From assembly GCA_023954035.1 (NCBI GenBank), contig JAMLIT010000015.1, positions 1 to 64,000 of the forward strand: DNA of 64,000 nucleotides. The letters run 5' to 3'. Of the stretch, positions 4,876-61,837 are shown piece by piece (the stretch's first letter is position 1; each line of letters starts with the position of its first letter). The notes under the pieces were generated by a model. It saw only the letters and a list, made by a program, of their open reading frames with translations, was not told where the DNA came from and did not search any database. The translations under genes were made by a program, and so were the position numbers. This DNA comes from Burkholderiaceae bacterium (GTDB lineage Bacteria > Pseudomonadota > Gammaproteobacteria > Burkholderiales > Burkholderiaceae_C).

Positions 4876-6000
4876 GTGAATTCGTCTTCCGTTTCCGAGC
4901 TGTACATCGGCCTGATGTCGGGCACCTCGCTCGATGGGGTGGATGCCGTCCTGGCCGACTTCTCTGGCCCGCGCTGCGTGGTGCTGGAGTACCACGCCAG
5001 CGCTTTTGACGACACCACCCGCGCCGAACTGCTGGCGCTCAACAGCCCTGGCGCCAACGAACTGCACCGCGCCGCCCTGGCCGCGAACGGCCTGGCCCGC
5101 CACTATGCTCAGGCCGTGCAAACCCTGTTACGGGAAGCGGGCGTACCCGCCCAGGCTGTGCGGGCCATCGGCGCCCATGGGCAGACGGTGCGCCACCGTC
5201 CCGGGGAATTCGACGGTACGGGATACACCCTGCAGCTGAACAACCCGGCCTTGCTGGCCGAGCTGACCGGCATTGCCGTGGTGGCCGACCTGCGCAGCCG
5301 CGACGTGGCGGCCGGTGGACAGGGCGCCCCCCTGGTGCCCGCCTTTCACCAGCACATGTTCGGCCAGCCAGGGCAGGACTTGCTGGTCCTGAACATCGGC
5401 GGCATCGCCAACCTGAGCGCGCTGGGCGCCGATGGCCGGGTGCTGGGCTTTGATTGCGGCCCTGGCAATGCCCTCATGGACCACTGGTGCCAGTTGCACA
5501 CCGGCCAGCCGTTTGATCGCGATGGCACCTGGGCCGCCAGCGGCCAGGTGCTGCCCGGCCTGCTGGCCTTGTTCCAGGAGGAACCCTACCTGCATCGTTT
5601 GCCGCCCAAGAGCACTGGGCGCGACCTGTTCCGTCCCGAATGGCTGCAGGAACGGCTGGCGCGCTTTGGCCCGGCAACAGCGGCAGACGTCCAGGCCACA
5701 TTGACGGAATTGACTGCCAGCGCATGTGCAGAAAGCGCAATAAGCTATCAAAACAATAGCAAATTTCTGATTGTCTGTGGGGGAGGCGCCTTCAACCGGC
5801 ACCTTATGGCGCGCTTGCAGGCCCTGCTGCCCGCGCTCCAGGTACAGGCGGCCGATGCCTTCGGTCTGCCCGCCCTGCAGGTGGAGGCGGCAGCGTTTGC
5901 CTGGCTGGCCCGCCAGGCCATGCGGGGCCTGCCGGGCAACCTCCCCATGGCAACGGGCGCCCAGGGCGCCCGTGTGCTGGGGTGCATCTACCCCGCGTGA
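4876..6000 (+). CDS. anmK: Anhydro-N-acetylmuramic acid kinase
   Basis: Phosphorylates and opens 1,6-anhydro-MurNAc to MurNAc-6-phosphate in peptidoglycan recycling; cytoplasmic, 374 residues, full length. It has the ATP-binding LMSGTSLDGVD near the N terminus, the LNIGGIANLS motif, DCGPGNALMD, and the late VCGGGAFNRHLM. The start is GTG at 4876. Residues ~280-296 (SACAESAISYQNNSKF) are encoded by a copy of the dispersed repeat and stand where relatives have a normal helix leading into the VCGGGA strand. The total length is not increased, so it looks like replacement rather than simple insertion. Confidence 0.95.
   Translation: MNSSSVSELYIGLMSGTSLDGVDAVLADFSGPRCVVLEYHASAFDDTTRAELLALNSPGANELHRAALAANGLARHYAQAVQTLLREAGVPAQAVRAIGAHGQTVRHRPGEFDGTGYTLQLNNPALLAELTGIAVVADLRSRDVAAGGQGAPLVPAFHQHMFGQPGQDLLVLNIGGIANLSALGADGRVLGFDCGPGNALMDHWCQLHTGQPFDRDGTWAASGQVLPGLLALFQEEPYLHRLPPKSTGRDLFRPEWLQERLARFGPATAADVQATLTELTASACAESAISYQNNSKFLIVCGGGAFNRHLMARLQALLPALQVQAADAFGLPALQVEAAAFAWLARQAMRGLPGNLPMATGAQGARVLGCIYPA
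5714..5763 (+). repeat. Double-hairpin dispersed repeat, copy B (inside anmK)
   Basis: CTGCCAGCGC...AAAGCGC followed by GCTAT-CAAAACA-ATAGC, the most perfect second hairpin in the family (5-bp stem, 7-base loop). The whole copy is translated in frame in anmK with no stop codon. Confidence 0.75.
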
Positions 6001-6038
6001 AATCAAGGCTGGCGGGCTGATGGCCTGCCGGAAACGGA

Positions 6039-6401
6039 TCAGGAGAAGCTCGAACCGCAGCCGCAGGTCGAGGTGGCGCCCGGGTTCTTGATGACGAACT
6101 GCGCGCCCTGCAGGTCTTCCTTGTAGTCGATCTCGGCACCCACCAGGTACTGGAAACTCATGGCGTCGATCAGCAGCGAGACGCCATTCTTGGTCATTAC
6201 CGTATCGTCGTCGTTCGTGATCTCATCAAACGTGAAGCCATACTGGAATCCGGAGCAGCCGCCGCCTTGCACAAAAACGCGCAGTTTGAGTTCCGGATTA
6301 CCTTCCTCGGCAATCAGATCCGCTACCTTGGCCGCCGCACTCTCGGTGAAGATGATGGGGTCGGGCATCTCGGCAGGGATATTTTCGGCTACGGCGCTCA
6401 T
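6039..6401 (-). CDS. erpA: Iron-sulfur cluster insertion protein ErpA
   Basis: A-type Fe-S carrier that delivers clusters to apo-enzymes; 120 residues. The three conserved cysteines are present: C49 in the [10 protein letters not shown] motif, and C113 and C115 in the C-terminal STCGCGSSF. The N-terminal extension [20 protein letters not shown] is usual for betaproteobacterial ErpA. It is the last gene of a same-strand run (DUF6776 protein, bactofilin, erpA), with 59 bp between bactofilin and erpA. Confidence 0.95.
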
Positions 6402-6460
6402 GGGCTAACTCCAATACTGGTTGGGGGACGATGCTACTGCAATCTCCCCGTTTCTTCTGT

Positions 6461-6859
6461 TTACTGCTTGCTTGACGCCAATTTCAGTGGGGGCTTTTCC
6501 TCCACCACGGTATCGGCAGGAACCATCTTTCCGCAGATGGTGGCGCCCTGGTGCATTTCCAGGGTCTTGTAGTGCACGTCGCCCGCAATGCGTGCCTTGG
6601 GCTGCAGCTCCAGCATGGTGCCCGCATGCAGCGGGCCATTGATGTGGCCGTTGACGATGACATGGTCGGCATACACCGCACCCTCGACACGCGCCGAGGC
6701 AGAGATCACCAGCAACCCCGGTTTGTCGGACCCCGCACGCACGTCCCCCACCACTTCGCCATCAATACGCAAACCATCGGTAAAGTGCACATTGCCTTCA
6801 ATGCGGCTCCCCTCGGCGATCAGGCTTTTGATGGGGGGTTGCTTGCTACGGGAAAACAT
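6461..6859 (-). CDS. Bactofilin (polymer-forming cytoskeletal protein)
   Basis: Forms nucleotide-independent filaments that scaffold cell-wall or surface functions. The 132 residues are a right-handed beta-helix of short repeats (IEGNVHFTDGLRIDGEVVGDV, SARVEGAVYADHVIVNGHINGPL), typical of DUF583/CcmA bactofilins. Short unstructured tails flank the core. The DUF6776 membrane protein is encoded 51 bp upstream on the same strand, and peptidoglycan enzymes lie nearby. Its cellular role here is inferred only from family. Confidence 0.88.
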   Translation of the reverse strand: MFSRSKQPPIKSLIAEGSRIEGNVHFTDGLRIDGEVVGDVRAGSDKPGLLVISASARVEGAVYADHVIVNGHINGPLHAGTMLELQPKARIAGDVHYKTLEMHQGATICGKMVPADTVVEEKPPLKLASSKQ

Positions 6860-6910
6860 GAATCAAACTCCTTGGGGTGCACACCGGCACGCAGTCGAAC
6901 ATCACCGCCA

Positions 6911-7639
6911 TCATTGCACGGCCATGGGCTTGCCCAGCACGGCCGTCTGCGTGGCATGAAGAACGCTGCCTTCCATCACCCGGGCGGTCACTGTTTTTAC
7001 CATGGTCCGCAGCGGGATATCGACCATTCCCTCCAGGCGGCGGTACTGGCGCAGCTGCAGCACTGCGGCTTCGGGTACGGTCTGGGTCCAGGGTTTGCCA
7101 TCCCGCGTCCCAGACAGAACCAGTTCCAGCCGCCCCTTGAAATCAGATGTGTTCTTGGCCTGGCGCATCACCAGCACCTGCCAGCGCAAATGGGCGTCGG
7201 CCAGCATTTCCGTCTGCAGCCCCCGAATCGCCACGCCATGGCTCCCTGCGTTGGCCGGGAGGAGTTTCTCGAAGAACCCCAGGTCTTCCCGCAAGGCGGC
7301 ACTCTCAGCCTCTGCCTGGCGCAAGCGGGCCATCAGTTGCTGCATGGCTGTGCGCTCGGCGACCAGCAGGCTGTCCGACGTATTGCTCACCGCCTGCAAC
7401 TGCTGGCTTTCCTCGCGCAGACGATCAACCTCCGCACGCAAGCGGACCAGTTCCTCGCGACTCACCCCTTCAAGGCCAGCGAGGGAACGCCCGAACTCGA
7501 AAGCCCACAGGGCCACGGCCGCACAAAAGCCAAACACAACTGCCAGAAAAAGCCACCGCAACGGCCACGGCATGGCGCTGCGCACCGCCATACGGGGTGC
7601 GCTGATGGTCAGGCGGCGACGCAACAATCGCAAGCGCAT
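6911..7639 (-). CDS. DUF6776 family membrane protein
   Basis: A 242-residue bitopic protein of unknown function. A basic N terminus is followed by one membrane segment at about residues 28-47, then a coiled-coil from ~55 to ~125 (REELVRLRAEVDRLREESQQL), then a beta-rich C-terminal domain. The start is the ATG at 7639; the open frame runs further upstream into rpsI but that part is out of character. The topology (anchor, coiled coil, periplasmic domain) resembles proteins that organise envelope machines. Its position beside bactofilin makes a partnership plausible but unproven. Confidence 0.7.
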   Translation of the reverse strand: MRLRLLRRRLTISAPRMAVRSAMPWPLRWLFLAVVFGFCAAVALWAFEFGRSLAGLEGVSREELVRLRAEVDRLREESQQLQAVSNTSDSLLVAERTAMQQLMARLRQAEAESAALREDLGFFEKLLPANAGSHGVAIRGLQTEMLADAHLRWQVLVMRQAKNTSDFKGRLELVLSGTRDGKPWTQTVPEAAVLQLRQYRRLEGMVDIPLRTMVKTVTARVMEGSVLHATQTAVLGKPMAVQ

Positions 7640-7743
7640 GGGCGTCCATTCTCCTTTGTGGTGTGGTGGGGCGTTACAGGCCTCATCTGGCAGGGCTTGT
7701 TTTGCGTGCCGCAATATACCCCGGTACCGCCGAATGCCCGCCG

Positions 7744-7784
7744 AAAAAACAAAGCCGCAACCGGGGCACCCCGTTGCGGCTTTG
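7744..7784 (-). terminator. Rho-independent terminator of rplM-rpsI
   Basis: On the minus strand a strong stem, AAAGCCGCAACGGGG paired with CCCCGGTTGCGGCTTT, is followed by TTTTTTC. It lies 22 bp after the rpsI stop and reads in the right direction. Confidence 0.88.
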
Positions 7785-7805
7785 AGCAAAGCAGTGAAAA
7801 GCGGA

Positions 7806-8198
7806 TTAACGCTTGGAGAACTGCTTGGCGCGGCGTGCAGAACGCAGACCGACTTTCTTGCGCTCGACTTCGCGCGCGTCACGCGTCACGAAACCAGCCT
7901 GGCTCAGGGCCGACTTGAGCGTTGCGTCATAGTCGATCAGGGCGCGGGTGATGCCGTGGCGGGCCGCGCCGGCCTGGCCGGACTCACCGCCGCCGTGCAC
8001 ATTGATCATCACGTCGAAGGTTTCGGCGTGGTTGGTCAACAACAGGGGTTGCTTGGCGATCATGATCGAGGTTTCACGGCCGAAATAGGACTGGATGTCC
8101 TTGCCGTTGATTGTGATCTTGCCAGAGCCTTTTTTCAGAAACACGCGGGCGACGCTGGATTTGCGACGGCCGGTGCCATTGTTCCATTCACCAATCAT
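7806..8198 (-). CDS. rpsI: 30S ribosomal protein S9
   Basis: Small-subunit protein whose C-terminal tail contacts P-site tRNA. 130 residues, starting [20 protein letters not shown] and ending in the invariant KR tail ([11 protein letters not shown]). It follows rplM by 11 bp in the universally conserved L13-S9 operon. Confidence 0.97.
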
Positions 8199-8209
8199 CT
8201 CAAGGCTCC

Positions 8210-8638
8210 TTACAGTTCCAGCACTTTGGGCTGTTGGGCGGTGTGGGGATGCTCAGCACCACCATACACCTTGAGTTTCTTGATCATGGCGTAGCCAAGC
8301 GGACCCTTGGGCAGCATGCCCTTGACAGCCTTTTCCAGCGCGCGGCCGGGGTGCTTGGATTGCATGTCGCGGAAGTTGGTGGCCGTGATGCCGCCGGGGT
8401 AACCCGAGTGGCGGTAGTACACCTTGTCGATGGACTTGGTGCCGGTGACCTTGAGTTTCGCTGCGTTGATGATGACGATGAAGTCACCGGTATCAACGTG
8501 AGGCGTGTAAATGGCTTTGTGTTTGCCGCGCAGACGGAGGGCAACTTCGCTGGCTACCCGGCCGAGCACCTTATCGGTGGCGTCAATCACAAACCACTCG
8601 TGCACGACCTCAGCGGGCTTTGCGCTGAATGTAGACAT
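8210..8638 (-). CDS. rplM: 50S ribosomal protein L13
   Basis: Early-assembling large-subunit protein. Starting at the ATG at 8638 gives 142 residues, exactly the family length ([20 protein letters not shown] ... [19 protein letters not shown]). The open frame extends upstream but that part is leader. A clear promoter lies about 180 bp upstream, so the transcript has an unusually long 5' leader of ~170 nt. Confidence 0.97.
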
Positions 8639-8814
8639 GAGATTTCTCTTTCGAGGGTTTGACCGGCCAAAAGAAGGGGCCGGTGTCCTTGGCGCTCTTT
8701 TCCACGGTCGGTGTTTCTCTTGAAGCGGAAACCTCTTAGGTGGTACTTGCAAAACAGGCCTGAAGGCCTTTTTCACACTTCGCCGCGGAGCACGCAAGCG
8801 CTGCGAAGCCCGCC

Positions 8815-8843
8815 ATTATACAAAGACCGCGCATTTGCGCCAA
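8815..8843 (-). promoter_or_regulatory. Sigma-70 promoter for rplM-rpsI
   Basis: Minus strand: TTGGCG (8843-8838), a 17-bp spacer, and a perfect TATAAT (8820-8815). Transcription would start near 8808, leaving ~170 nt of leader before rplM. The leader includes a short hairpin AGGCCTTCAGGCCT at about 8755-8770. Confidence 0.8.
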
Positions 8844-8860
8844 CCCGCCTGCAAAAAGCA

Positions 8861-9502
8861 TCAGGCAAGCCGGGCGCGCAGCGCACGCACGGCGCTTTCC
8901 GGCGTGGTCAGCACCGGCAAACCCAGCGCATCGCGCACGGCGGGCGCGGCACGGGCCATGCTGAACTGTGCCAGCGCAATGACCGAACAGCCGGCCGCCG
9001 CCAGATCCTGCGCTGCAGCCACCACCGCCCGGTCATGCGCCGCCCCGTCGCCGCGATTGAGGGCATCCATGGCGCCGGTCGCCAGCGCACACCGAAGATC
9101 GACCGATGCCGGAAACTCTTCCGGCATGCTGGCAAGCGTCGGTGCAAAGGAGGCGATCAACCCCACCCGACCGCCCAGGTCTGCCGCATCCTGCACCATG
9201 GCCTCGTTGGGCTTGAGCACGGGAAGACCTGCATGCCTGCGCGCCACCGCCTCGATGCAGGGACCGAATGCGGAACAGGTGAACAAGATCGCCTGCGCGC
9301 CCGTTGCTACAGCATAGTCGGCCAGCACAGCGAAACGCGCATGCATGGCGTCGTCCAGACCCCGCCCGCTGCGCGCCAGATCGGCGGACAGACTGTCGTC
9401 GAGCAGGTTCATGCGCAACACTTCAGGCCAGGCTTGCACCAGCGCCGCGTTGATCGGATCGACCGAATGCGCCAGCGCATGAATGAGGGCCAGGCGCGTC
9501 AC
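8861..9502 (-). CDS. Aspartate/glutamate racemase family protein
   Basis: A 213-residue cofactor-independent racemase-like protein (Asp/Glu/hydantoin racemase superfamily). The paired catalytic cysteines are in ILFTCSAFG (N-terminal half) and AAGCSVIALAQFS (C-terminal half); the second motif is atypical. The likely start is GTG at 9502, overlapping the TRAP permease stop by four bases (GTGA). It is the last gene of the aminotransferase-TAXI-TRAP operon, so it probably acts on the imported substrate or its product. The exact substrate is unknown. Confidence 0.75.
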   Translation of the reverse strand: MTRLALIHALAHSVDPINAALVQAWPEVLRMNLLDDSLSADLARSGRGLDDAMHARFAVLADYAVATGAQAILFTCSAFGPCIEAVARRHAGLPVLKPNEAMVQDAADLGGRVGLIASFAPTLASMPEEFPASVDLRCALATGAMDALNRGDGAAHDRAVVAAAQDLAAAGCSVIALAQFSMARAAPAVRDALGLPVLTTPESAVRALRARLA

Positions 9503-12102: not shown

Positions 12103-12130
12103 GGGTGTCCTCGCAATCCATGGAAGAAAC

Positions 12131-12160
12131 AAAAAAGCCCTGAAGAATCAGAGCTTTTTT
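12131..12160 (-). terminator. Intra-operon hairpin terminator between TAXI protein and permease
   Basis: AAAAAAGC-CCTGA-loop-TCAG-AGCTTTTTT, a symmetrical U-tailed hairpin in the 91-bp gap between the binding protein stop (12194) and the permease start (12102). As an attenuating terminator it would let the binding protein be made in excess over the permease, as is usual for binding-protein transporters. Confidence 0.65.
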
Positions 12161-12193
12161 GCGGCAGATACCGACGTGCCCTCAGGCCGCGGC

Positions 12194-13171
12194 TTACATC
12201 CAGCCCTTTTCCTTGTAGTACTTCACGGCGCCTGGATGGAGCGGAGCACTCATGCCGTCCTTGATCATGTTCTTGGGATCAAGGTGCGAAAACGCGGGGT
12301 GCAGCTTCTTGAATTCATCGAAATTCTCGAACACCGCCTTGACCAGTTCGTACACCGTGGCGTCCGGCACCTTGGCCGAGGTCACGAATGATGCCAGCAC
12401 ACCGTAGGTCGGCGTCGGGTTGGGGTGGCCCGCATACAGACCGCCAGGAATGTTCACCTTGGCATAGAAGCTGTTGTCCTTGACCAGCTTGTCCACGGCC
12501 GGCCCCTGCAGCGGAACCAGGCGCGCACCACAGGTGGTGATCGGGTCCTGGATGTTGGCGCTGGGATGGCCCACGCCATAGAAGAAGCCATCGATCTTGT
12601 TGTCGCACAAGGCCGCGCCGTGCTCATCGGCCTTGAGCTCCGAGGCCAGGCCAAAGTCCGCCAGCGTCCAGCCCATGGCACCGAGCAATTCATCCATGGA
12701 GGCTCGCGTGCCCGACCCCGGGTTGCCCACATTGAAACGCTTGCTCTTGAAATCTTCAAACTTCGCGATGTTGGCCTCTTTGCGGCTCAGCACGGTAAAG
12801 GGCTCGGGATGCAGAGAGAAGACCGCGCGCAGGTCCGTGAACTTTCCGTCCTTGGCGAACGCCTTGGTGCCGTTGACTGCGTGGTACTGCCAGTCAGACT
12901 GGGCCACACCGAAGTCCAGTTCACCCTGGCGAATGGTATTGATGTTGACCACCGAGCCGCCTGTCGATTCCACCGAACAGCGAATGCCATGGCGCGACCG
13001 TTCCTTGTTGACCAGGCGGCAGATGGCGCCACCAGCTGCGTAGTACACGCCAGTGACACCACCGGTGCCAATGGTCATGAACTTGGGCTGCGCCACTGCG
13101 GCGGGCGCCATCATCGACGCGGCCAGCCCAACGGAGGCAGCCAATACGCTCAGGGAAAGTTTCGTCTTCAT
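12194..13171 (-). CDS. TAXI family TRAP substrate-binding protein
   Basis: Periplasmic solute-binding protein for the TRAP permease; 325 residues. The signal peptide ([20 protein letters not shown]) is cut after about residue 27, and the mature chain opens with the TAXI signature [24 protein letters not shown] proteins often bind glutamate or dicarboxylates; the ligand here is not shown. The upstream aminotransferase gene ends 40 bp away, which suggests one transcript. Confidence 0.9.
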
Positions 13172-13211
13172 CTTTTCGTCTCCTTCAAAAAACCGGTTTC
13201 AAGAGTTGCAG

Positions 13212-14561: not shown

Positions 14562-14710
14562 GCGGGCAAGTTTAGAGCGTTGATCACCGTGCACGTATGC
14601 CGATTGATAGCCTTTCCATAACGAAAGCTCATAGCACCCATAAGCTGCGGACATGGCCCGTGCACCGATTGGCATTCGACGTGCAGGCGCCCGCGTCCTA
14701 GCATGGACCC

Positions 14711-16890: not shown

Positions 16891-16903
16891 CGAGGGCGGG
16901 CGT

Positions 16904-22469: not shown

Positions 22470-22486
22470 AAATATTTAAGCAAAAT

Positions 22487-22540
22487 ACGCTTCAACCGCT
22501 TATCTGTAAAGCGGCTTAAGCTATTAAATCAATAGCAAAT
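22487..22540 (+). repeat. Double-hairpin dispersed repeat, copy C (ahcY-tlyA gap)
   Basis: First stem CCGCTT/AAGCGG, where the family norm is GCGCTT/AAGCGC: both sides changed together. Second hairpin GCTAT-TAAATCA-ATAGC. The tail CAAATCA supplies the TGA stop of ahcY on the other strand. The copy fills the 70-bp gap between ahcY and tlyA and so lies inside their common transcript. Confidence 0.8.
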
Positions 22541-23973
22541 CAATACCGGTAGGTATCGGGCTTGTACGGGCCTTGCTTGGGCACGCCAATGTAGGCCGCC
22601 TGCTCATCGGACAACTCGCTCAGCATGGCGCCCACCTTCTTCAGGTGCAGGCGTGCCACCTTCTCGTCCAGGTGCTTGGGCAGCACGTACACCTTGCCGT
22701 TTTCGTAGTAGTCACTGTGCGTGAACAGCTCGATCTGGGCAATGGTCTGGTTGGCAAAGCTCGACGACATGACGAAGCTCGGGTGGCCCGTGCCGCAACC
22801 CAGGTTCACCAGACGGCCCTTGGCCAGCAGGATGATGCGCTTGCCGTCTGGGAAGATCACATGATCGACCTGGGGCTTGATCTCTTCCCATTCGTACTGT
22901 TCCAGCGTGGCCACCTGGATTTCGTTGTCGAAGTGGCCGATGTTGCAGACTATTGACTGGTCCTTCATGGCCAGCATGTGGTCATGCGTGATCACGTCCT
23001 TGTTGCCCGTGGTGGTCACAAAGATGTCGGCCTTGTCAGCCGCGTATTCCATGGTGACCACACGATAGCCTTCCATCGCGGCCTGCAGGGCGTTGATGGG
23101 GTCGATCTCGGTCACCCACACCTGGGCCGACAGCGCACGCAGCGCCTGGGCGCTGCCCTTGCCCACGTCGCCGTAGCCGGCCACGCAGGCCACCTTGCCG
23201 GCGATCATCACGTCGGTGGCGCGCTTGATGCCGTCCACCAGCGACTCGCGGCAGCCGTACAGGTTGTCGAACTTGCTCTTGGTGACCGAATCGTTCACGT
23301 TGATGGCACGGAACATCAGGCTGCCTTTGGCCGACATTTCCTTCAGGCGGTGCACGCCGGTGGTGGTTTCCTCGGTCACGCCGATGATCTCGGCGCTCTT
23401 GCGGCTGTACCAGGTGGGGTCTTGCGCCAGCTTGGCCTTGATGGCGGCAAACAGGCAGGTTTCTTCTTCGCTGGTCGGGTTGGCAATGAGGGAGGCGTCC
23501 TTCTCAGCACGCTTGCCCAGGTGCATGAGCAGCGTGGCGTCGCCGCCGTCGTCCAGGATCAGGTTCGGGCCTTCGCCGGGCGTGCCTGCAGCGCCGAAGT
23601 CAAAGATGCGGTGTGTGTAGTCCCAGTAGTCCGCCAGCGACTCGCCCTTGATGGCGAACACCGGCGTGCCGCCGGCGGCAATGGCCGCGGCGGCGTGGTC
23701 CTGCGTGGAGAAGATGTTGCACGAGGCCCAGCGCACCTGGGCGCCGAGCGCCTGCAGCGTCTCGATCAGCACGGCGGTCTGGATGGTCATGTGCAGGCTG
23801 CCGGTGATGCGCGCGCCCTTGAGCGGCTGCCTGGCGGCAAATTCCTCGCGGATGGCCATCAGGCCGGGCATCTCGGTTTCGGCGATGCGGATTTCCTTGC
23901 GGCCCCAGTCGGCAAGGCCGATGTCGGTAATGGCGCGGTCGGTGGCGGAAAAAGCGGGGTTGCGGGCGTTCAT
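22540..23973 (-). CDS. ahcY: S-adenosylhomocysteine hydrolase
   Basis: NAD-dependent enzyme that splits SAH to adenosine and homocysteine; 477 residues from the ATG at 23973 ([20 protein letters not shown]). Visible motifs: the NAD-binding [33 protein letters not shown], and the C-terminal [12 protein letters not shown] signature that closes the active site. It carries the ~40-residue internal segment typical of proteobacterial forms ([17 protein letters not shown] region). Expression is controlled by the SAH riboswitch just upstream. Confidence 0.97.
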
Positions 23974-24048
23974 GCTTGGCTCCAAAAGCTGTTTTGAAAC
24001 ACCACCTGCCGCGAGAGAGATTTGCAGCCCATCGCACGCAAGGTGGAT

Positions 24049-24166
24049 GAGCGTCGTTGCACAGCGGATCGGTGCGCCTGTCGAACCGACAGACCCTTCG
24101 GCCCGGCCTCCCAAGCCTCACGCCTGCTTTTGAATCGCGGGACGCTGCAACGCTCCTCGGGAGAAG
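24049..24166 (-). ncRNA. SAH riboswitch upstream of ahcY
   Basis: Minus-strand leader with all core elements of the S-adenosylhomocysteine aptamer. P1 pairs CUCCCGAG (24163-24156) with CUUGGGAG (24115-24108). The conserved GAGCGNUGC block follows P1, then a GC-rich P2 and the AGGCUYGG segment. The pseudoknot strand GAGCGU (24155-24150) pairs with ACGCUC (24054-24049) in CAACGACGCUC. The usual consensus as I recall it is GAGCGC with GCGCUC, so both sides have changed together. An extra hairpin CTGTCG-GTT-CGACAG (24093-24079) sits between P1 and the pseudoknot strand. High SAH should raise expression of ahcY, tlyA and metF. Confidence 0.9.
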
Positions 24167-25527: not shown

Positions 25528-27156
25528 TTGTCCTACGCCCTTGAAACCCGGCGCCGCCGCACCTTTGCCATCATCTCCCACCCCGACGCCGGCAAGACCA
25601 CGTTGACGGAAAAGCTCCTGCTGTTCTCGGGCGCGATCCAGATCGCCGGCGCCGTCAAGGGCCGCAAGGCCAGCCGACATGCCACGTCCGACTGGATGGA
25701 GATCGAAAAGCAGCGCGGCATCTCGGTCGCGTCAAGCGTGATGCAGATGGCCTACCGCGACCATGTCATCAACCTGCTCGACACGCCCGGCCACAAGGAT
25801 TTTTCGGAGGACACCTACCGCGTTCTCACCGCCGTCGATTCGGCCTTGATGGTGATCGACGCCGCCAACGGTGTGGAAGCACAAACCCGCCGCCTGATCG
25901 AAGTCTGCCGCCAGCGCGACACGCCCATCATCACCTTCGTCAACAAGATGGACCGCGAGGTGCGCGACCCGCTGGACATCCTCGACGAGGTCGAGCGCGA
26001 ACTCGGCATGCCCTGCTGCCCCATCACCTGGCCCGTCGGTCAGGGCAAGAGCTTTGGCGGCATCATCAACCTGCGCACGCAGACCATGACGGTGTTCACC
26101 CCCGGCAGCGACCGGGGGCCCAAGGACTTTGAAGTGGTGCCGCTGGCCGAGGCCGACCGGCTGCGCAAGCGCTTTGGCCAGCCCTTTGACGATGCGCTCG
26201 AGAGCATGGAGCTGGCCGTCGGCGCCTCGGCCGCGTGGAATCACGATGAGTTTCTGGCCGGCAAGCTCACGCCGGTGTTCTTCGGCTCCGGCGTGAACAA
26301 CTTCGGCGTGATGGAAGTGCTGGACGCGGTGGTGGACATGTCGCCCCCGCCCGGCCCGCGCATCAGCACGCTGCTGGTCAACAAGCAGCCGGTGGTCAAG
26401 ACGGTGCAGCCTGAGGACGAAGGGTTTTCCGGCGTGGTCTTCAAGGTGCAGGCCAACATGGACGCCAACCACCGCGACCGCATCGCCTTCGTGCGCGTGG
26501 CCTCCGGCCGCTACCAGCCGGGCATGAAGCTCAAGGTGCAGCGCACCGGCAAAGAGCTGCGCCCGACCAGCGTCGTCACCTTCATGAGCCAGCGGCGCGA
26601 AGCCGTCGAAGAAGCCTACGCCGGCGACATCATCGGCTTTACCACGCACGGCGGCGTGCAGCTGGGCGATACCATCACCGATGGCGCCAACCTGCAGTTC
26701 ACCGGTCTGCCGTTCTTTGCGCCCGAGCTGTTCATGACGGTGATTTTGAAAAATCCACTGCGCACCAAGCAGCTCCAGCAAGGCCTGGCCCAGTTGGGCG
26801 AAGAAGGCGCGATCCAGGTCTTCAAACCCGACGTCGGCGGCCCGATGCTTCTCGGGGCCGTGGGGCAGCTGCAGTTTGAAGTGGTGCAGCACCGCCTGCG
26901 CGCCGAGTACGACGCCGACGTGCGTCTGGAAGGCTGCCAGTACACGGGAGCGCGCTGGATCACGGCGGACAGTCCGGCGGATTTGCGCGCCTTCACCGAC
27001 GCCTACCCCATGCGTTTGTCGCACGACGCAGCGAATGCCCTGGCGTTTTTGTGCACCTCACCGTACGACGTGCGGCTGGCGCAGGAGCGGTTTCCGAAAA
27101 TCCACTTCCATCCGCTGCGCGAGCACGCGGGCTTGAGCCTGGGCAGCGCCGGCTGA
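25528..27156 (+). CDS. prfC: Peptide chain release factor 3
   Basis: GTPase that recycles RF1/RF2 from the ribosome; 542 residues. G1 is SHPDAGKTTL, G3 is DTPGHKDFSEDT and G4 is NKMDRE; GRKASRHATSDWMEIEKQRG is diagnostic of RF3. The start is judged to be TTG at 25528 (MSYALETRRRRTFAII) because family members begin just here; the frame is open further upstream without similarity. Its stop overlaps the HAD gene start by one base (TGATG). Confidence 0.95.
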   Translation: MSYALETRRRRTFAIISHPDAGKTTLTEKLLLFSGAIQIAGAVKGRKASRHATSDWMEIEKQRGISVASSVMQMAYRDHVINLLDTPGHKDFSEDTYRVLTAVDSALMVIDAANGVEAQTRRLIEVCRQRDTPIITFVNKMDREVRDPLDILDEVERELGMPCCPITWPVGQGKSFGGIINLRTQTMTVFTPGSDRGPKDFEVVPLAEADRLRKRFGQPFDDALESMELAVGASAAWNHDEFLAGKLTPVFFGSGVNNFGVMEVLDAVVDMSPPPGPRISTLLVNKQPVVKTVQPEDEGFSGVVFKVQANMDANHRDRIAFVRVASGRYQPGMKLKVQRTGKELRPTSVVTFMSQRREAVEEAYAGDIIGFTTHGGVQLGDTITDGANLQFTGLPFFAPELFMTVILKNPLRTKQLQQGLAQLGEEGAIQVFKPDVGGPMLLGAVGQLQFEVVQHRLRAEYDADVRLEGCQYTGARWITADSPADLRAFTDAYPMRLSHDAANALAFLCTSPYDVRLAQERFPKIHFHPLREHAGLSLGSAG

Positions 27157-28004
27157 TGGAGCGTTCCCTGCAGCCGCTCTCCGCCTGGCATCCGCCACCC
27201 GACCTGCTCGGCGTGTTCACCGACATCGACGACACCCTGACCACGGACGGTGCCATCACGCCCGACGCGCTGGCCGCCCTGGGGGAATTGAAGGCTGCGG
27301 GCCTGCATGTCATTCCGATCACCGGGCGGCCGGTGGGCTGGAGCGAGCGCTTTGCGGCCGCCTGGCCCGTGGATGCGGTGGTGGCAGAAAACGGTGCCGT
27401 GGCGCTGCGCCCGCCGTCCACCGAATTTTCAGATCAAATCGGCCTCCTGCGCTTATCCGACAAGCGCAAGCAGCTATCAAAAATATACCAACAAGACGCG
27501 GCGGTGCGCGCTGCCAACTTCACTGCCATGCACGCGGTTTTGGAGCGTATCGAGCGCGAAGTGCCGCAGGCCCGCCGGGCACAGGATTCGGCGGGACGCG
27601 AGACCGACATTGCCATTGACCACAGCGAATTTGCCCATCTGCCCCAGCCCGCCATTGATGCCTGCGTGGCCATCATGCGGGCCGCCGGCATGAGCGCGTC
27701 GGTCAGCAGCATTCACATCAACGGCTGGTTTGGCGCGCACAACAAATGGGAAGGCGCGCGCTGGATTGTGCGCGAGCTGTTCGGGAGCGATCTGGCGCAG
27801 GAGTCGGCGCGCTGGGTCTATGTGGGCGATTCCACCAACGACCAGATCATGTTCGAGCACTTCGAGCACAGCGTGGGCGTGGCCAACATTGCGCGCTTTG
27901 TGCCGCAGTTGATCCATCTGCCACGCTATGTGACGGTCGGCGAGCGCGGCGCCGGGTTTGCTGAAGTGGTGCGGCAGCTTCTCAAGGCCGGCACTGCGCA
28001 ATAA
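27156..28004 (+). CDS. HAD-IIB hydrolase, mannosyl-3-phosphoglycerate phosphatase-like
   Basis: 282 residues with HAD motif I VFTDIDDTLTTDG, motif II PITGRP, and a late motif IV region GDSTNDQIMFEHF. This is the Cof/MPGP branch that dephosphorylates sugar phosphates; the substrate is not certain. The start ATG overlaps the prfC stop by one base, so translation is coupled. Residues ~95-111 (GLLRLSDKRKQLSKIY) are encoded by a dispersed repeat copy in the region that normally links the core to the cap domain. Confidence 0.82.
   Translation: MERSLQPLSAWHPPPDLLGVFTDIDDTLTTDGAITPDALAALGELKAAGLHVIPITGRPVGWSERFAAAWPVDAVVAENGAVALRPPSTEFSDQIGLLRLSDKRKQLSKIYQQDAAVRAANFTAMHAVLERIEREVPQARRAQDSAGRETDIAIDHSEFAHLPQPAIDACVAIMRAAGMSASVSSIHINGWFGAHNKWEGARWIVRELFGSDLAQESARWVYVGDSTNDQIMFEHFEHSVGVANIARFVPQLIHLPRYVTVGERGAGFAEVVRQLLKAGTAQ
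27439..27488 (+). repeat. Double-hairpin dispersed repeat, copy D (inside HAD gene)
   Basis: CGGCCTCC, then the stem TGCGCTT/AAGCGCA (outer A-T pair of other copies changed to T-A on both sides), then GCTAT-CAAAAAT-ATA. It is translated in frame as part of the phosphatase. Confidence 0.8.
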
Positions 28005-36380: not shown

Positions 36381-36402
36381 CCCCAGAATTTCTATAGAAA
36401 TA

Positions 36403-36451
36403 TGCCTCCAGCGCTTATTCGGCAAGCGCTGATAGCTATTGATTTTGTAGC
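36403..36451 (+). repeat. Double-hairpin dispersed repeat, copy E
   Basis: The cleanest first stem of all: CAGCGCTT-N6-AAGCGCTG, 8 bp perfect, followed by GCTAT-N7-GTAGC. It lies between ctlX (stop 36380) and the convergent membrane protein, whose TAG stop is at 36457-36459, a few bases beyond the repeat tail. Confidence 0.85.
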
Positions 36452-36456
36452 TCAGG

Positions 36457-48431: not shown

Positions 48432-48436
48432 GGCGG

Positions 48437-49227: not shown

Positions 49228-49280
49228 CCATTGTGATGACTTGGTGCGCAAGCCGATAGGGCCGCGCACCGCAGCGCAAC

Positions 49281-51089: not shown

Positions 51090-51102
51090 GATGGCTCAGT
51101 CC

Positions 51103-51583: not shown

Positions 51584-51624
51584 GAAAAAAGCCTCCGAGC
51601 GGCCTGGCTGGCCGCTCGGAGGCT
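51584..51624 (-). terminator. Rho-independent terminator after the lipoprotein gene
   Basis: AAGCCTCCGAGCGGCC-AGCCA-GGCCGCTCGGAGGCTT followed by TTTT on the minus strand: about 16 paired bases, 17 bp after the stop at 51642. Confidence 0.92.
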
Positions 51625-51641
51625 TGTGCGGGGCGGGTGAC

Positions 51642-52142: not shown

Positions 52143-52285
52143 CGGAAACTCCAATAGCAAAGGGGGCAGGGAATGCGGCAGAGCCGTCTGCCGCGCTGGT
52201 CCCATGCTAAGAACGCCTGCCTCCGGCCCCTGTCCGTGCAGGACAGCGCGGCATGTAGGAGCGCGCCGACGAAGCCCGGCAGCGC

Positions 52286-58261
<5,976 letters not shown>

Positions 58262-58398
58262 GGGATCCTTCACTTAGGGGCAAGCATCATAGGAGCCCTC
58301 ACGCGGTGCTGCAGCGGCGGCGCGAGTGCCATTGCCGTGGAGGTGGTCAGACGCTGCAAGCTGGCCTAGACTTGGGCGCTGGACCAAAGGAGACAGGG

Positions 58399-59511
58399 AT
58401 GAACCACTGGAAATGGGCAGTCACCGCAGGCACCTTACTCATCGGCCTGCACGGCGCCTTGCAGGCGCAGTTGTTGATCGGGCAGACGGTGGGCGTGACC
58501 GGGTCCGCCGCCGCCACCGTCAAGGAATCCATGGGCGGCGCGCAGCTTTACATTGACTCGGTGAACGCACGCGGCGGTGTCAATGGCCAGAAAGTGGAAA
58601 TCCTGACGCTGGACGACCGGTTCGACCCCAAGCTCACCCTGGCCAACGCCCGCACGCTGATTCAAGAGAAGAACGTGCTGGCGCTGTTCATGACGCGCGG
58701 CACACCGCACACCGTGGGCATTCTTCCGCTGCTTGATGAATTCGGCGTGCCGCTGGTGGGCCCGTCCACCGGCGCCATGGTGCTGCACGAACCGGTGAAG
58801 AAAAACATTTTCAACGTCCGCGCGCCCTACCAGCGCGAAGTGAAAAAGGCCATCGGCCATTTGGCCACCCTGGGAGTACAGCGCATCGGCGTGGTCCACG
58901 TGGACGACACCTTTGGCGCCGACGCCCTGGCCGGCGCGCTCGCCGGCTTCAAAGACAACCAACTCGAAGCGCTGTTCGTAGAGAAATTTGATCGCGCCAA
59001 ACCCGATTTCAGCGCCATCGCGCCGGCTGTCGCCAAGCAAAACCCGCAGGCGGTGCTTATTTTCGGCACCGGCTCGGCCGTGGTCGACGGCATCAAGGCC
59101 CTGCGCGCTGCCGGCGTCACGGGGCAGATCGTCACGCTGTCCAACAACGCCTCCGGCGGCTTCGTCAAGGCGCTGGGGGGCGAGTCGCGCGGCGTGGTGG
59201 TCACGCAGGTCTTTCCGTCGGAGCGGGCGGTCACCTTTCCGCTGGTGCGCGAGGCAACGGGCCTGGCGCAGCAAGCCAAAATCCAGCTCACGCCCGCCAT
59301 GGTCGAGGGCTTTACCAACGCCAAAGTGCTGGTGGAAGGCCTGCGCCGCGCCGGGCCCAACCCGACGCGCGCCAGCCTGCACAAGGCGCTGGAGACGTTC
59401 AACAAGTTCGACCTGGGTGGCCTCACACTCAGCTACACCGCAGACGACCATTCCGGGCTCGACTTCTCCGACCTCTCCATCATCGGCCCTGAGGGGCACT
59501 TTCGCCGCTAA
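58399..59511 (+). CDS. ABC transporter substrate-binding protein (LivK/HAAT type)
   Basis: 370 residues: a signal peptide (WAVTAGTLLIGLHGALQA) then a periplasmic-binding type 1 fold with VGVTGSAAATVKESMGGAQLY, VNARGGVNGQKVEI and the middle VHVDDTFGADALAGALAGF. AAAGGAGA stands before the ATG at 58399. No permease or ATPase genes are beside it, so it is an orphan binding protein, common in this family. Ligand unknown (branched-chain amino acids, amides or aromatics in relatives). Its 3' end overlaps the TetR gene by 32 bp. Confidence 0.88.
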   Translation: MNHWKWAVTAGTLLIGLHGALQAQLLIGQTVGVTGSAAATVKESMGGAQLYIDSVNARGGVNGQKVEILTLDDRFDPKLTLANARTLIQEKNVLALFMTRGTPHTVGILPLLDEFGVPLVGPSTGAMVLHEPVKKNIFNVRAPYQREVKKAIGHLATLGVQRIGVVHVDDTFGADALAGALAGFKDNQLEALFVEKFDRAKPDFSAIAPAVAKQNPQAVLIFGTGSAVVDGIKALRAAGVTGQIVTLSNNASGGFVKALGGESRGVVVTQVFPSERAVTFPLVREATGLAQQAKIQLTPAMVEGFTNAKVLVEGLRRAGPNPTRASLHKALETFNKFDLGGLTLSYTADDHSGLDFSDLSIIGPEGHFRR

Positions 59512-60151
59512 ACGCGGACAATGGCGCAGGTGGGAGCAGAAACGCGTGACTGAGCTGCACCAGGGCATCTTCCAGCTCCGTGCTGCCCAGCATCGGTGAC
59601 TGCTCCAAAGACGCAGCCCGCACCGCGCCCATGAATGCGCGCGTCAGCACGAACAACTGCGAAGGCGTCAATGGCCCAGCACCCTCGCGCTGCGCCAGGC
59701 GTTGCAGAGACAACGCCAGCCGCTCGCTGGTCCCGCGCACGGCGACCAGCATGGCGGCACGGTAGTCGATCTGCCACGAGAGGCGCGCGAGTGCCCGCTC
59801 CGCAGTGTTGCCCGCAGCAAACGCGGCGAGGTAGCGCCGCACGTACTGCCGCACCTGCTGCTCCAAAGGCCATTGCTCCTGCTCAGCACGCGCAAGCACG
59901 GCGTCGAGTTCGAGCATCACGTTCTCGCAATGCCTGTCAAGCATGGCCGCGAGGATGGCTTCCTTGCTGGGGAAGTATTGGTACAAGGAGCCGATGGAAA
60001 CGCCTGCCACTTCGGCAATGCGGTTGGAGGTGAGGCCCGCCTCTCCCTGGGTGGCGACTATCTGCCGGACCGCCTGAAAAATAGCCTCCACCGTCACCAG
60101 AGAACGTGCTTGCCGAGGCTTTCGGCGCGGCGTGGAAGCGGCAGAGGACAT
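59480..60151 (-). CDS. TetR family transcriptional regulator
   Basis: 223 residues. The helix-turn-helix is at ~25-65 (VEAIFQAVRQIVATQGEAGLTSNRIAEVAGVS split as two helices, then GSLYQYFPSKEAILAAML). The all-alpha ligand domain is of the TetR_C type. It is divergent from the membrane protein at 60199 with only 47 bp between, so it likely represses that gene and itself. Confidence 0.9.
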   Translation of the reverse strand: MSSAASTPRRKPRQARSLVTVEAIFQAVRQIVATQGEAGLTSNRIAEVAGVSIGSLYQYFPSKEAILAAMLDRHCENVMLELDAVLARAEQEQWPLEQQVRQYVRRYLAAFAAGNTAERALARLSWQIDYRAAMLVAVRGTSERLALSLQRLAQREGAGPLTPSQLFVLTRAFMGAVRAASLEQSPMLGSTELEDALVQLSHAFLLPPAPLSAFSGESAPQGR

Positions 60152-60198
60152 GCGAAACCTGAGTACAAAGCGAGTAGGCGAAGGCGTTGGCGCTGATT

Positions 60199-60891
60199 AT
60201 GCTGAGCCGCATGAAAGCCGCCAAACCTACTCTGAACTGCGGTGCTTCCCCCCGTTCACAGCGCTTCTGGAGCCTGCGTGCGCTGCACCGCGCCAGCGCC
60301 ATGCTGCTTGCCGGACTTGTGTTGATGCACCTGGGCAACCACCTCGCCGGCCTGCGTGGCCTGGGCGTGCACCAGGCTGTCATGGAGAGCTTGCGCGCAC
60401 TCTACCGCCAGCCGACGGTGGAAGCGGTGTTGCTGGCCGCCGTGCTGTTTCAAGTCGGCAGCGGAACGCTGCTGTGGTGGCGCGGGCGCGGGCAACGCCA
60501 CGGCTGGGTCGCACGGGTTCAGGCGGCCTCGGGCCTGTATCTGGCATTTTTCCTGCTTGTGCATGTAAGCGCCGTGCTCAGCGCGCGTCTGCAAGGGGTG
60601 GACACCAACTTCTACTTTGCTGCGGCAGGGGTGCACGTGGCGCCCTTCTACCTCTTCTTTGTGCCCTATTACTTCCTGGCAGTGCTGGCGTTCTGGACGC
60701 ATGCGGCGTGCGGCCTGTACTGGAACTTGCCGCCGCGCCACCAGCAGCCGGTGCTGGCCGCAATGCTCTTGGTCGGCGTGCTGATGGCGGGCACGCTGGC
60801 GCTGTGGCTGGCCGGCGGCATCTATCCGATCGATATCCCCGCGCCCTACCTCGCGTCCTTTCCGGCAAGCCTGCGCGGCGCGGGCCTGTAG
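60199..60891 (+). CDS. Membrane protein, possible cytochrome b-like (SdhC/FrdC-type)
   Basis: 230 residues, five to six membrane helices. Histidines within or at helix ends (LMHLGNHLAGL, FFLLVHVSAVL, AGVHVAPFYLFF, FWTHAACGLYW) are arranged like haem ligands in fumarate reductase/succinate dehydrogenase membrane anchors, but no partner subunit is near. The start ATG at 60199 is preferred. Divergent from the TetR gene. Function is not known. Confidence 0.6.
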   Translation: MLSRMKAAKPTLNCGASPRSQRFWSLRALHRASAMLLAGLVLMHLGNHLAGLRGLGVHQAVMESLRALYRQPTVEAVLLAAVLFQVGSGTLLWWRGRGQRHGWVARVQAASGLYLAFFLLVHVSAVLSARLQGVDTNFYFAAAGVHVAPFYLFFVPYYFLAVLAFWTHAACGLYWNLPPRHQQPVLAAMLLVGVLMAGTLALWLAGGIYPIDIPAPYLASFPASLRGAGL

Positions 60892-60920
60892 GCCAGCGCA
60901 CCGCCGGCGTGTGGCCGAGC

Positions 60921-61565
60921 TCAGCCTGACAAGCCGCTGGGCACCCGGGCCGGCGCGTCCCATTGCTGCTCAAACCAGGCGTCGCCCTCCACGCAGGCCC
61001 TCAGCATGGGCAGGCCATCGAACCCCCAGAACAGCTTGCCGTCCACGCCAAATGCCGGCACGCCGAACACGCCTTGTGCGGCGGCGGCGTCGGTGTTGCT
61101 GCGCAGCATGGTTTTGACTTCCGGGCTTCCGGGCTCCATACCGGGTTGGAGTTGCGGCGCCAGCGCGGCGGCCAGCGCATCGAGGCGCGCCGCGTCCAGC
61201 GCATCGTGCCCACCCACCCAGACGTGGCGCAGCACAGTGCCAGCCACGAAACGGTTGATGCTGCCATCCACCGAACAAGACAGCGCTTGGCGCAGCAGCG
61301 GCAGCGGGTTGAACGGGTGGCGCGCCGGCATCTGCAAAGGAACGCCCAGCGCATGGCCCAGCCAGCTGACGTGCCGGTACGTCCAGTCGCGCTTCGGACG
61401 AATGCCGGCCGGACCGGGGTTGCCGTGTTGCTGCAACAGCGCGCCCAGCAGCACCGGCCGGTATTCAACGCGGTAGCTCAGGCCTTCAAGCGCCTCAGGC
61501 AGGCGCTCGAAGGCCAGCCAGGCGTAGGGAGAGATGAAGTCGAGGTAGAAGGTGATGTGTTTCAT
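60921..61565 (-). CDS. DsbA-like 2-hydroxychromene-2-carboxylate isomerase family protein
   Basis: 214 residues of the thioredoxin-fold GST-kappa/HCCA isomerase family: starts MKHITFYLDFISPYAWLAFE with the S-P-Y active site (Ser instead of Cys), and has VFGVPAFGVDGKLFWGFD. Likely a glutathione-dependent isomerase in aromatic degradation or a general GST-kappa. The start ATG overlaps the DUF1289 stop by four bases (ATGA). Confidence 0.85.
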   Translation of the reverse strand: MKHITFYLDFISPYAWLAFERLPEALEGLSYRVEYRPVLLGALLQQHGNPGPAGIRPKRDWTYRHVSWLGHALGVPLQMPARHPFNPLPLLRQALSCSVDGSINRFVAGTVLRHVWVGGHDALDAARLDALAAALAPQLQPGMEPGSPEVKTMLRSNTDAAAAQGVFGVPAFGVDGKLFWGFDGLPMLRACVEGDAWFEQQWDAPARVPSGLSG

Positions 61566-61837
61566 GGCTGCTCCGTCGTGTGCAAACTCTCTGGCACGGG
61601 GGCGCCTGCACGACCTAGCAGCCGCACCCAGATGGCGCGCCGCGTGGCGTCGTCGGCCACGGACCAGTGGCGGATTTCGTCGATGGTGCGAAAACACCCC
61701 TCGCACAGGCTGCCATCGACCGACATGCGGCACACCGACACGCAAGGCGAGGGCACGACTTCGTCGGAATCATGGTCAAAATAGCCTGCAGCGCTTAGTG
61801 TGCTTGCGCGAGCCGCTATTGTCTGTATAGCAGTCAT
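61562..61837 (-). CDS. DUF1289 domain-containing protein
   Basis: 91 residues; a short cysteine motif protein with PSPCVSVCRM...GSLCEGCFRTIDEIRHW, four cysteines that could bind a metal or Fe-S centre. The ATG at 61837 overlaps the YbaK stop (ATGA). Residues ~3-20 (AIQTIAARASTLSAAGYF) are encoded by a dispersed repeat copy, so the natural N terminus was supplied by the element. Confidence 0.85.
   Translation of the reverse strand: MTAIQTIAARASTLSAAGYFDHDSDEVVPSPCVSVCRMSVDGSLCEGCFRTIDEIRHWSVADDATRRAIWVRLLGRAGAPVPESLHTTEQP
61778..61831 (+). repeat. Double-hairpin dispersed repeat, copy J (start of DUF1289 gene)
   Basis: AATAGCCTGCAGCGCTT...TGCGC, then GCTAT-TGTCTGT-ATAGC. It begins five bases inside the coding region and gives the first ~20 codons of the DUF1289 protein on the other strand. 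Confidence 0.75.

What the first reader, a model, noticed from the sequence alone, without database searches (positions are those of the whole stretch)
5714..61831. Repeat copies lie in frame inside protein genes, like Rickettsia palindromic elements
Five copies are translated: AnmK residues ~280-296, HAD phosphatase ~95-111, UvrA ~463-480 and ~1614-1631, and the first ~20 residues of the DUF1289 protein. The three antisense ones use the same frame and give related peptides ([38 protein letters not shown]). The two sense ones use different frames but still have no stop. The repeat thus seems able to spread through coding DNA while keeping frames open, as reported for Rickettsia and Wolbachia protein-inserted palindromes. 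In AnmK the segment replaces a normal helix without changing length.
Basis: partly seen in the sequence, partly recalled or inferred. Interest (0 to 1): 0.85.

Follow-up and report, generated by a model that had tools for sequence, protein, structure and literature searches.

The report
Conserved chromosomal DNA motif inside genes
A 58-letter DNA signal, present hundreds of times on the chromosomes of many Comamonadaceae bacteria, also lies inside their protein genes, where it is often spelled by unusual codon choices rather than by inserted DNA, and it may be the missing mark by which these bacteria recognise their own DNA.

Summary
The five in-frame copies are real, but insertion explains only some. 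An HMM trained only on intergenic copies finds 16 in-gene copies (>=20 bits) in 405 kb of genes; ten synonymous-codon shuffles gave one in total. In three 400-kb genome samples from two genera, 40 of 157 copies lie in genes, in all six frames. UvrA (two) and the HAD gene hold inserts at variable linkers. AnmK and the DUF1289 start have no extra residues. In DUF1289, 23 of 23 genus members other than the three repeat-free ones spell one Ile ATA (about 4% of Ile codons); those three use ATT. The copies do not look like decaying transposons: between orthologous intergenic copies the blocks differ at 17% of positions, spacers at 55%. None was found in 200 kb of two extrachromosomal contigs of Simplicispira suum, where 24 were expected. 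I read the repeat as a maintained chromosomal signal, most likely of the DNA-uptake type: sequence-selective transformation is reported in this family (PMC4212676). Function is untested. Rickettsia-like spread is only partly supported.

The parts
1977..2032 (-). motif copy, intergenic between convergent genes, 46.0 bits
5710..5765 (+). motif copy inside anmK (sense), 33.7 bits; no length change against any orthologue compared
4876..6000 (+). anmK (anhydro-N-acetylmuramic acid kinase), host gene
   Evidence: Pfam AnmK
22479..22540 (+). motif copy, intergenic, 40.6 bits
27434..27487 (+). motif copy inside HAD-type hydrolase gene (sense), 37.1 bits; 15 residues extra against G014
27156..28004 (+). 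HAD-type hydrolase gene (Pfam Hydrolase_3), host gene
36396..36452 (+). motif copy, intergenic, 53.6 bits
40801..40861 (+). motif copy, intergenic, 43.7 bits
43076..43133 (+). motif copy, intergenic between convergent genes, 47.7 bits
53366..53426 (+). motif copy antisense inside uvrA-like gene, linker at residues 1613-1631, 40.6 bits; 90 nt extra against repeat-free G002 and G005
56818..56877 (+). motif copy antisense inside uvrA-like gene, variable linker at residues 462-480, 51.9 bits; 96 nt extra against G002
52286..58261 (-). uvrA-like gene of about double length (about 1990 residues), host of two copies
61775..61836 (+). motif copy antisense over the start codon and first 20 codons of a DUF1289 gene, 28.2 bits; residues shared with repeat-free relatives, codons not
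61562..61837 (-). DUF1289 gene, host
95..155 (+). weaker motif copy antisense inside a gene that reads like GlmU (name recalled from the peptide, not searched), 22.6 bits
19529..19597 (+). weak motif match inside an unidentified gene, 16.9 bits

Best explanation
The five segments are copies of a chromosomal DNA motif of Comamonadaceae, about 58 bp, with two inverted repeats, near-invariant blocks and random spacers, about one per 8 kb. SHOWN: the blocks are conserved at intergenic sites while spacers drift; in-gene copies share the host genome's own version of the motif; a quarter of copies lie in genes, either as in-frame inserts in linkers or in place, without length change, through codon choice and tolerated residues; none was found in the sampled extrachromosomal contigs of one closed genome. 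INFERRED: it is a recognition signal of the DNA-uptake (DUS/USS) type. Fragments carrying a good motif are taken up and recombined preferentially, so the motif spreads and is kept by allele replacement at homologous places in the core genome, including inside genes where the protein tolerates it, and is not kept on plasmids. New sites also arise by short insertions in permissive linkers; how those are made is unknown.
For: Codon-level writing: 16 in-gene hits >=20 bits against 1 in ten synonymous shuffles; 40 of 157 copies in genes in three 400-kb samples, 0 in 15 shuffles; DUF1289 Ile codon ATA in 23/23 genus genomes (21 shown to carry the repeat; G040 and G041 not in that search but with the anmK copy) and ATT in the 3 repeat-free ones, ATA being 4% of Ile codons; in other genera [AC]TAGCT at that place in 15 of 16 repeat-positive and 1 of 5 repeat-negative genomes whose alignment reaches the N-terminus, and in 0 of the 7 others read; AnmK segment GC3 0.44 in 22 carriers, 0.80 in 15 non-carriers, gene median 0.82. 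Length neutrality. Constraint: 89 orthologous intergenic pairs differ 0.166 in blocks and 0.547 in spacers; without requiring a hit in the second genome, 104 of 147 intergenic comparisons at 60-88% flank identity still score >=20 bits. Genome-specific logo shared by in-gene copies: model position 39 is A in 18/19 in-gene copies of G153 and 6/13 of G012, Fisher p=0.003; position 40 likewise; position 41 not (p=0.22). Core: 0 hits in 200 kb of two extrachromosomal contigs of G012, 24 expected, P=4e-11; 3 of 72,556 plasmid and 0 of 50,697 phage records. Between tandem genes 31 same and 40 opposite orientation; convergent spacers favoured (37 of 115 copies against 112 of 681 spacers), divergent avoided (7 of 115 against 140 of 681). 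Host genes include uvrA, rarA, topB, mutS, ligA, comEC. Selective DNA uptake by Verminephrobacter (pilus-dependent) and own-species-only transformation of Acidovorax, no signal named in the parts read (PMC4212676: abstract, section 21, first part of the discussion, passages). Neisserial DUS are reported to arise by recombination in permissive core regions (PMC2397512: passages).
Against: No uptake experiment; no receptor identified; lack of cross-species transformation may reflect poor recombination rather than uptake. About 55 bits over 58 bp and 1.2 copies per 10 kb against DUS of 9-11 bp (PMC4212676). Clean insertions exist, which uptake drive alone does not make. In-gene copies are kept less well than intergenic ones: 197 of 410 comparisons at 60-88% flank identity score >=20 bits, 156 below 10. 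Weak in-gene matches (6-12 bits) are only slightly more frequent than in shuffles (15 against 8.75), so gradual origin by point mutation has little support. The block/spacer contrast is measured on pairs where both copies match the model, which lowers block differences, and few sites supply many pairs. A 6-kb contig of G022 carries two copies. The presence in DNA-maintenance genes was noticed afterwards and not tested. Four AnmK rows from repeat-rich genomes (G012, G014, G018, G000 contig 34) lack the copy, as do 12 of 19 repeat-positive other genera.
Confidence: 0.42

Rival explanations
1. A mobile palindromic element of the Rickettsia RPE / MITE type that inserts in genes in frame and then decays.
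For: Clean 60-nt in-frame insertion in the uvrA of G001; 90-96 nt at the UvrA linkers and 15 residues in the HAD protein against relatives lacking them; in-gene copies are lost in many relatives (156 of 410 comparisons below 10 bits); other genera carry other inserts at the same UvrA linker.
Against: Blocks conserved while spacers are random, no alike subfamilies by eye; block conservation and retention at orthologous intergenic sites; none in the sampled extrachromosomal contigs; AnmK, DUF1289, RarA, CoaBC, LigA show no insertion.
Confidence: 0.2
2. A REP-like domesticated element moved long ago by a RAYT (Y1 transposase) and now kept for a structural role (gyrase, IHF or transcript 3' ends).
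For: Two inverted repeats; preference for convergent spacers; a Y1_Tnp protein in 22 of 26 genus genomes; one 250-residue Y1_Tnp gene (L247) has a 21.6-bit motif copy at its end.
Against: A Y1_Tnp protein of about 250 residues is present also in the repeat-free G002, G005 and G008; the other 11 of 12 Y1_Tnp loci fetched (most of them shorter, IS-like proteins) have no motif copy; stem changes are only partly compensatory.
Confidence: 0.2
3. A binding site of a nucleoid, segregation or replication protein, scattered over the chromosome, under ordinary selection; transformation plays no part.
For: Sequence blocks rather than base pairs are conserved, genome-specific logos, both orientations, chromosomal.
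Against: No candidate protein found here; copies inside conserved enzymes are costly unless each site matters; presence in 39 of 150 family genomes is patchy.
Confidence: 0.17

Closest known systems
DNA uptake sequences of Neisseriaceae / uptake signal sequences of Pasteurellaceae
   Same: Chromosomal core motif, conserved while its surroundings diverge, in and between genes, present in DNA-maintenance genes (PMC2397512 passages); genome-specific forms (dialects of DUS recalled)
   Different: About 58 bp with two inverted repeats and 55 bits instead of 9-11 bp; about ten times rarer (density of DUS recalled); uptake not shown
Rickettsia palindromic elements and Wolbachia palindromes
   Same: Palindromic repeat translated inside conserved proteins
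   Different: RPE are 105-146 bp and reported as in-frame fusions (PMC2229807 passages); here several in-gene copies add no length and lie in codon choice
Motif pair GCTTAT(N)5AAGCG of Acidovorax ebreus TPSY (and ATAGCT(N)22CAAAAG of Polaromonas naphthalenivorans)
   Same: Same core string; 114 copies, 107 intergenic, 5 in genes, 44 convergent against 4 divergent (PMC5217627, section 13 read)
   Different: That section reports motif pairs without the full element, its constraint, codon-level copies, absence from plasmids or a function
REP / BIME with RAYT
   Same: Short palindromes in hundreds of copies, mostly near gene ends (recalled)
   Different: REPs are 20-40 bp and most are GTAG- or CGTC-tagged (PMC3733652, title and start of abstract in listing); Y1_Tnp genes here do not track the repeat

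Membership tests
DNA uptake sequence (DUS/USS) | Presence in a DNA fragment raises its uptake by competent cells | not testable with these tools
   Needs a bench assay
DNA uptake sequence (DUS/USS) | Over-represented on the chromosome and conserved at orthologous places while flanks diverge | tested here: met
   (intergenic copies; in-gene copies are kept less well)
DNA uptake sequence (DUS/USS) | Core genome, scarce on plasmids and phages | tested here: met
   exception: two copies on a 6-kb contig of G022
DNA uptake sequence (DUS/USS) | Short motif of about 9-12 bp | tested here: not met
   58 bp, about 55 bits; so it is not filed as a DUS, only said to work like one
Rickettsia-type palindromic element (RPE) | In-gene copies are in-frame insertions that lengthen the protein | tested here: inconclusive
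   True for UvrA x2, HAD and the G001 uvrA copy; not true for AnmK, DUF1289, RarA, CoaBC, LigA
Rickettsia-type palindromic element (RPE) | 105-146 bp element | tested here: not met
   58-66 bp model with two separate inverted repeats; RPE size from PMC2229807 passages
MITE | Alike recent copies over the whole length | tested here: not met
   Random spacers, no alike subfamilies by eye
MITE | Target-site duplication and a mobilising transposase | not tested
   One clean insertion was viewed but its ends were not resolved
REP with RAYT | Repeat presence follows, and flanks, a RAYT gene | tested here: not met
   Y1_Tnp protein of about 250 residues in repeat-free G002, G005, G008; motif at 1 of 12 Y1_Tnp loci
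Rfam RNA family | Match to a curated family | tested here: not met
   No motif copy in the window matched at E<=1

The most novel reading that the evidence does not exclude
The motif is the DNA uptake signal of Comamonadaceae: a long, two-palindrome uptake sequence with genus-specific dialects that shapes codon use and residues inside core genes, and that explains the selective transformation of Acidovorax and Verminephrobacter. Species that lost it, such as the three repeat-free members of this genus, keep its peptide in DUF1289 as a fossil while their codons drift back.
Probability: 0.3. Interest if true: 0.9.

Novelty: new variant of a known kind. Interest (0 to 1): 0.78.

Why it matters
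It shows a DNA-level signal imposed on protein-coding sequence across a bacterial family, detectable because the same residues are spelled with rare codons only in genomes that carry the signal. If it is an uptake signal, it would lie outside Neisseriaceae and Pasteurellaceae and would explain the selective transformation reported in Acidovorax and Verminephrobacter, with a direct test. If it is a nucleoid or segregation site, it is an unusually large one. Either way, in-frame repeats in proteins need not be insertions of selfish DNA.

Tried and rejected
Chance likeness: rejected by synonymous-codon shuffles. Built to keep frames open: rejected; total open frames are fewer than in shuffled copies (72 against 88 +/- 6.6; copies with at least one open frame 34 of 34 against 33.1). 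Transposase link: Y1_Tnp proteins present also without the repeat. RNA structure as the conserved feature: stems vary with few compensating changes in the family-wide counts, although one orthologous group swaps GCGCTT/AAGCGC for GCGCCC/GGGCGC. Rfam: no match. Structure of the UvrA linker: AlphaFold model too poor (mean pLDDT 51), so whether inserts fall in surface loops is open. TilS: 18.1 bits only, and 6 residues longer than the solved TilS 1ni5, counted as weak. L206:8657 of the G012 sample lies in what reads, by eye, as a run-on of a uvrA-like 3' fragment and is a doubtful in-gene case although it is in the count of 12. In-gene and intergenic calls rest on a home-made gene finder; 30 host genes were given to NCBIfam or Pfam (10 of G012, including TilS; 10 of the 12 of G004; 10 of the 16 of G153) and 26 matched a family.

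Literature: nine word searches (only the top of each list was seen) showed the motif only as a motif pair in PMC5217627, and no description of it inside genes or as an uptake signal; they cover open-licence PMC papers only. One paper of Ogata and colleagues on RPE was looked up and not held; their work is known here through PMC2229807 and from recall.
Full report
What was checked. All five are present, in frame, in genuine genes. The window lies in a 76-contig assembly whose relatives are Simplicispira, family Comamonadaceae: G012 is Simplicispira suum SC1-8, since the 15 kb compared of its contig 2 is identical to plasmid NZ_CP027670 of the same length; G007, G021 and G002 share contig lengths with records of S. 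hankyongi, Acidovorax sp. SCN 68-22 and Giesbergeria anulus.

The element. In evenly spaced 400-kb samples of three genomes (G012 and G004 of the genus, G153 of another genus) the intergenic-only model finds 48, 52 and 57 copies at 20 bits or more, about one per 8 kb. The alignment of 71 intergenic copies, orthologues included, shows blocks close to invariant, among them GCGC, AAGCG and AGCTAT, separated by spacers with 0.1 to 0.5 bit; the total is about 55 bits. The repeat was found at E<=0.001 in 39 of 150 family genomes, 36 of 133 genera, and in 0 of 16 genomes of other families of the order. In the genus, G002, G005 and G008 have none and 21 others searched have it.

Not chance. A model trained on 34 intergenic copies of G012 and the window, DUF1289 left out, was run on 410 genes (405 kb). 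It gives 16 hits >=20 bits and 21 >=15; ten shuffles that keep every protein and its codon content but deal synonymous codons anew give 1 and 5 in all. In the three 400-kb samples 12, 12 and 16 copies are in genes, 40 of 157, in all six frames; 15 shuffles gave none. A histogram over the three samples shows 55 gene hits at 15 bits or more, copies that only overlap a gene end included, against 0.5 in shuffles, but only 15 against 8.75 between 6 and 12 bits.

Inserted copies. The uvrA of G001 has a copy where eight relatives are exactly 60 nt shorter and three others 78-84 nt shorter. The UvrA sites of the window are 96 nt (first) and 90 nt (second) longer than in repeat-free G002, and the second 90 nt longer than in G005; these linkers also vary in length where no motif is found, for instance 87 nt longer in G001. 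The HAD protein has 15 more residues than G014, while others keep a segment of about equal length that scores low and looks like a decayed copy. AceE and Uup hold copies in length-variable linkers.

Copies in place. AnmK has no indel in 55 rows (53 distinct, the window's own included; the non-genus rows are the 28 best of 143 genomes with a match), and none against the solved AnmK 3qbw; yet the site scores 15 bits or more in 18 of 25 genus rows and in 7 of 19 repeat-positive other genera, against 0 of 9 repeat-negative ones (repeat status). In carriers the third-base GC of this segment is 0.44 against a gene median of 0.82; in non-carriers it is 0.80. RarA keeps nearly the residues of other genera, at equal length in three of five repeat-free genomes, but its codons match the motif only in G012 (27.0 bits; 10.1 in repeat-carrying G014; at most 2.1 in the other five). 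LhgO is of equal length in the four genomes with a match. Against solved homologues (organisms recalled, not shown by the tool) CoaBC and LigA have no gap at the copy, RarA and Lnt are shorter, LpxK and MutS 2 and TilS 6 residues longer; an inserted copy would add about 18. These seven were chosen by me as conserved enzymes, not at random, and five of them hold copies of only 21 to 27 bits.

The clearest case is DUF1289. In all 26 genus genomes the protein begins with much the same residues, I-A-A-R-A in most. In the 23 genomes other than G002, G005 and G008 the Ile is ATA, which is 4% of Ile codons, and the next Ala is GCT in 22; in those three the Ile is ATT and the next codon GCC or ACC. 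Of the 23, 21 were shown to carry the repeat; G040 and G041 were not in that search but carry the anmK copy. Among the 28 best non-genus matches the block [AC]TAGCT stands there in 15 of 19 repeat-positive and 1 of 9 repeat-negative genomes; for three of the former and four of the latter the alignment did not reach the N-terminus, and without these the counts are 15 of 16 and 1 of 5. Another 114 genomes with a match were not read. Synonymous third bases of these five codons are more alike between carriers (0.785) than in the rest of the gene (0.622), though eleven of 78 five-codon windows are higher, several overlapping the motif. Shared ancestry adds to these counts. Most distant repeat-negative genera have other N-termini, so whether the residues came from the motif or before it cannot be told.

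Constraint. In 89 pairs of orthologous intergenic copies, block positions differ at 0.166, spacer positions at 0.547 and the 20 bases on each side, compared without gaps, at 0.526 and 0.544; in 228 in-gene pairs 0.160, 0.451, 0.431 and 0.450. Both copies of a pair had to match the model, which lowers block differences, and few sites supply many pairs. A count without that condition: of 147 intergenic comparisons at 60-88% flank identity, 104 score >=20 bits in the second genome and 20 below 10; of 410 in-gene ones, 197 and 156; against G002 and G005, 0 of 38 score 10 or more. So intergenic copies are held firmly, in-gene copies less so. The motif has genome-specific forms that in-gene copies share: in G153 the three bases just before AGCTAT are nearly fixed as AGC, in G012 they are free; position 39 is A in 46/47 (outside genes) and 18/19 (in genes) for G153 against 13/36 and 6/13 for G012, with the third of these bases not different in genes (p=0.22).

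Place in the genome. Copies outside genes favour convergent spacers (37 of 115; spacers 112 of 681) and avoid divergent ones (7 of 115; spacers 140 of 681), with no strand preference between tandem genes (31 to 40). Sampled stretches of the two smaller contigs of S. suum (200 of 237 kb; one is a confirmed plasmid, the other taken as one) have no copy where 24 were expected. A 71-kb contig of G022 has none, a 6-kb contig has two. Three of 72,556 plasmid records and no phage record of 50,697 matched the consensus; BLAST with a consensus is less sensitive than the model.

What it most likely is. A decaying mobile repeat would not keep its blocks while its spacers randomise, nor appear in genes without length change, and would be expected on plasmids. 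A signal read on DNA fits. Of such signals, uptake sequences fit best in my judgement: in Neisseria they are reported to arise by recombination, to sit in permissive core positions and to be enriched in genome-maintenance genes (PMC2397512, passages); host genes here include uvrA, rarA, topB, mutS, ligA and comEC, a post-hoc remark. In this family, V. eiseniae takes up DNA selectively and with its type IV pili, and no tested Acidovorax species was transformed by another's DNA; in the parts read no signal is named (PMC4212676: abstract, section 21, first part of the discussion, passages). Poor recombination could also explain the Acidovorax result. Against the uptake reading stand the length of the motif, its rarity, the real insertions and the lack of any assay. 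Nucleoid or segregation sites and REP-like elements remain open.

Known before. PMC5217627 lists GCTTAT(N)5AAGCG in Acidovorax ebreus (114 copies, 5 in genes) and a pair in Polaromonas naphthalenivorans that I take for the same element (125 copies, 18 in genes) as motifs without function (section 13). In-frame palindromes are known from Rickettsia, and ERIC and Correia elements are also reported in frame (PMC2229807, passages). New here as far as the nine searches show: constraint, codon-level copies, genome-specific forms, absence from sampled plasmids and the uptake proposal.

Noticed in passing
window 1-64000, switch near 23,900: The contig looks mosaic: 1 to about 23.9 kb is 98-100% identical to G016, the rest is mostly closer to G012 (S. 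suum), at 73-100%; the assembly also holds a second, G012-like AnmK on contig 34. Assembly chimera or recombination.
   Followed up: partly
UvrA linker, window residues about 450-490; L018, L019, L022, L024, L035, L036, L059, L073, L080: The same UvrA linker holds other repeat-like peptides in other genera (for instance SPASGRG...LPLAGEGRGEG in Variovorax guangxiensis and RSTTRSASERG in Comamonadaceae MAGs), so it may be a hot spot for in-frame repeats of several families.
   Followed up: no
L013 (G007) UvrA, before the FMPQG motif: A second insert of about 28 residues in S. hankyongi, not seen at that place in the other loci printed, looking like another translated repeat.
   Followed up: no
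window 24042-24164, minus strand: SAH riboswitch above Rfam's gathering score.
   Followed up: no
G022 contig 3 (L388): A 6,145-base contig carries two motif copies although the 71-kb contig of the same genome has none.
   Followed up: no
L206:8657-8717 and L206:18222-18283: Two motif copies follow what read by eye as uvrA-like C-termini about 9.6 kb apart in S. suum, as if the 3' end of uvrA with its motif had been duplicated.
   Followed up: no
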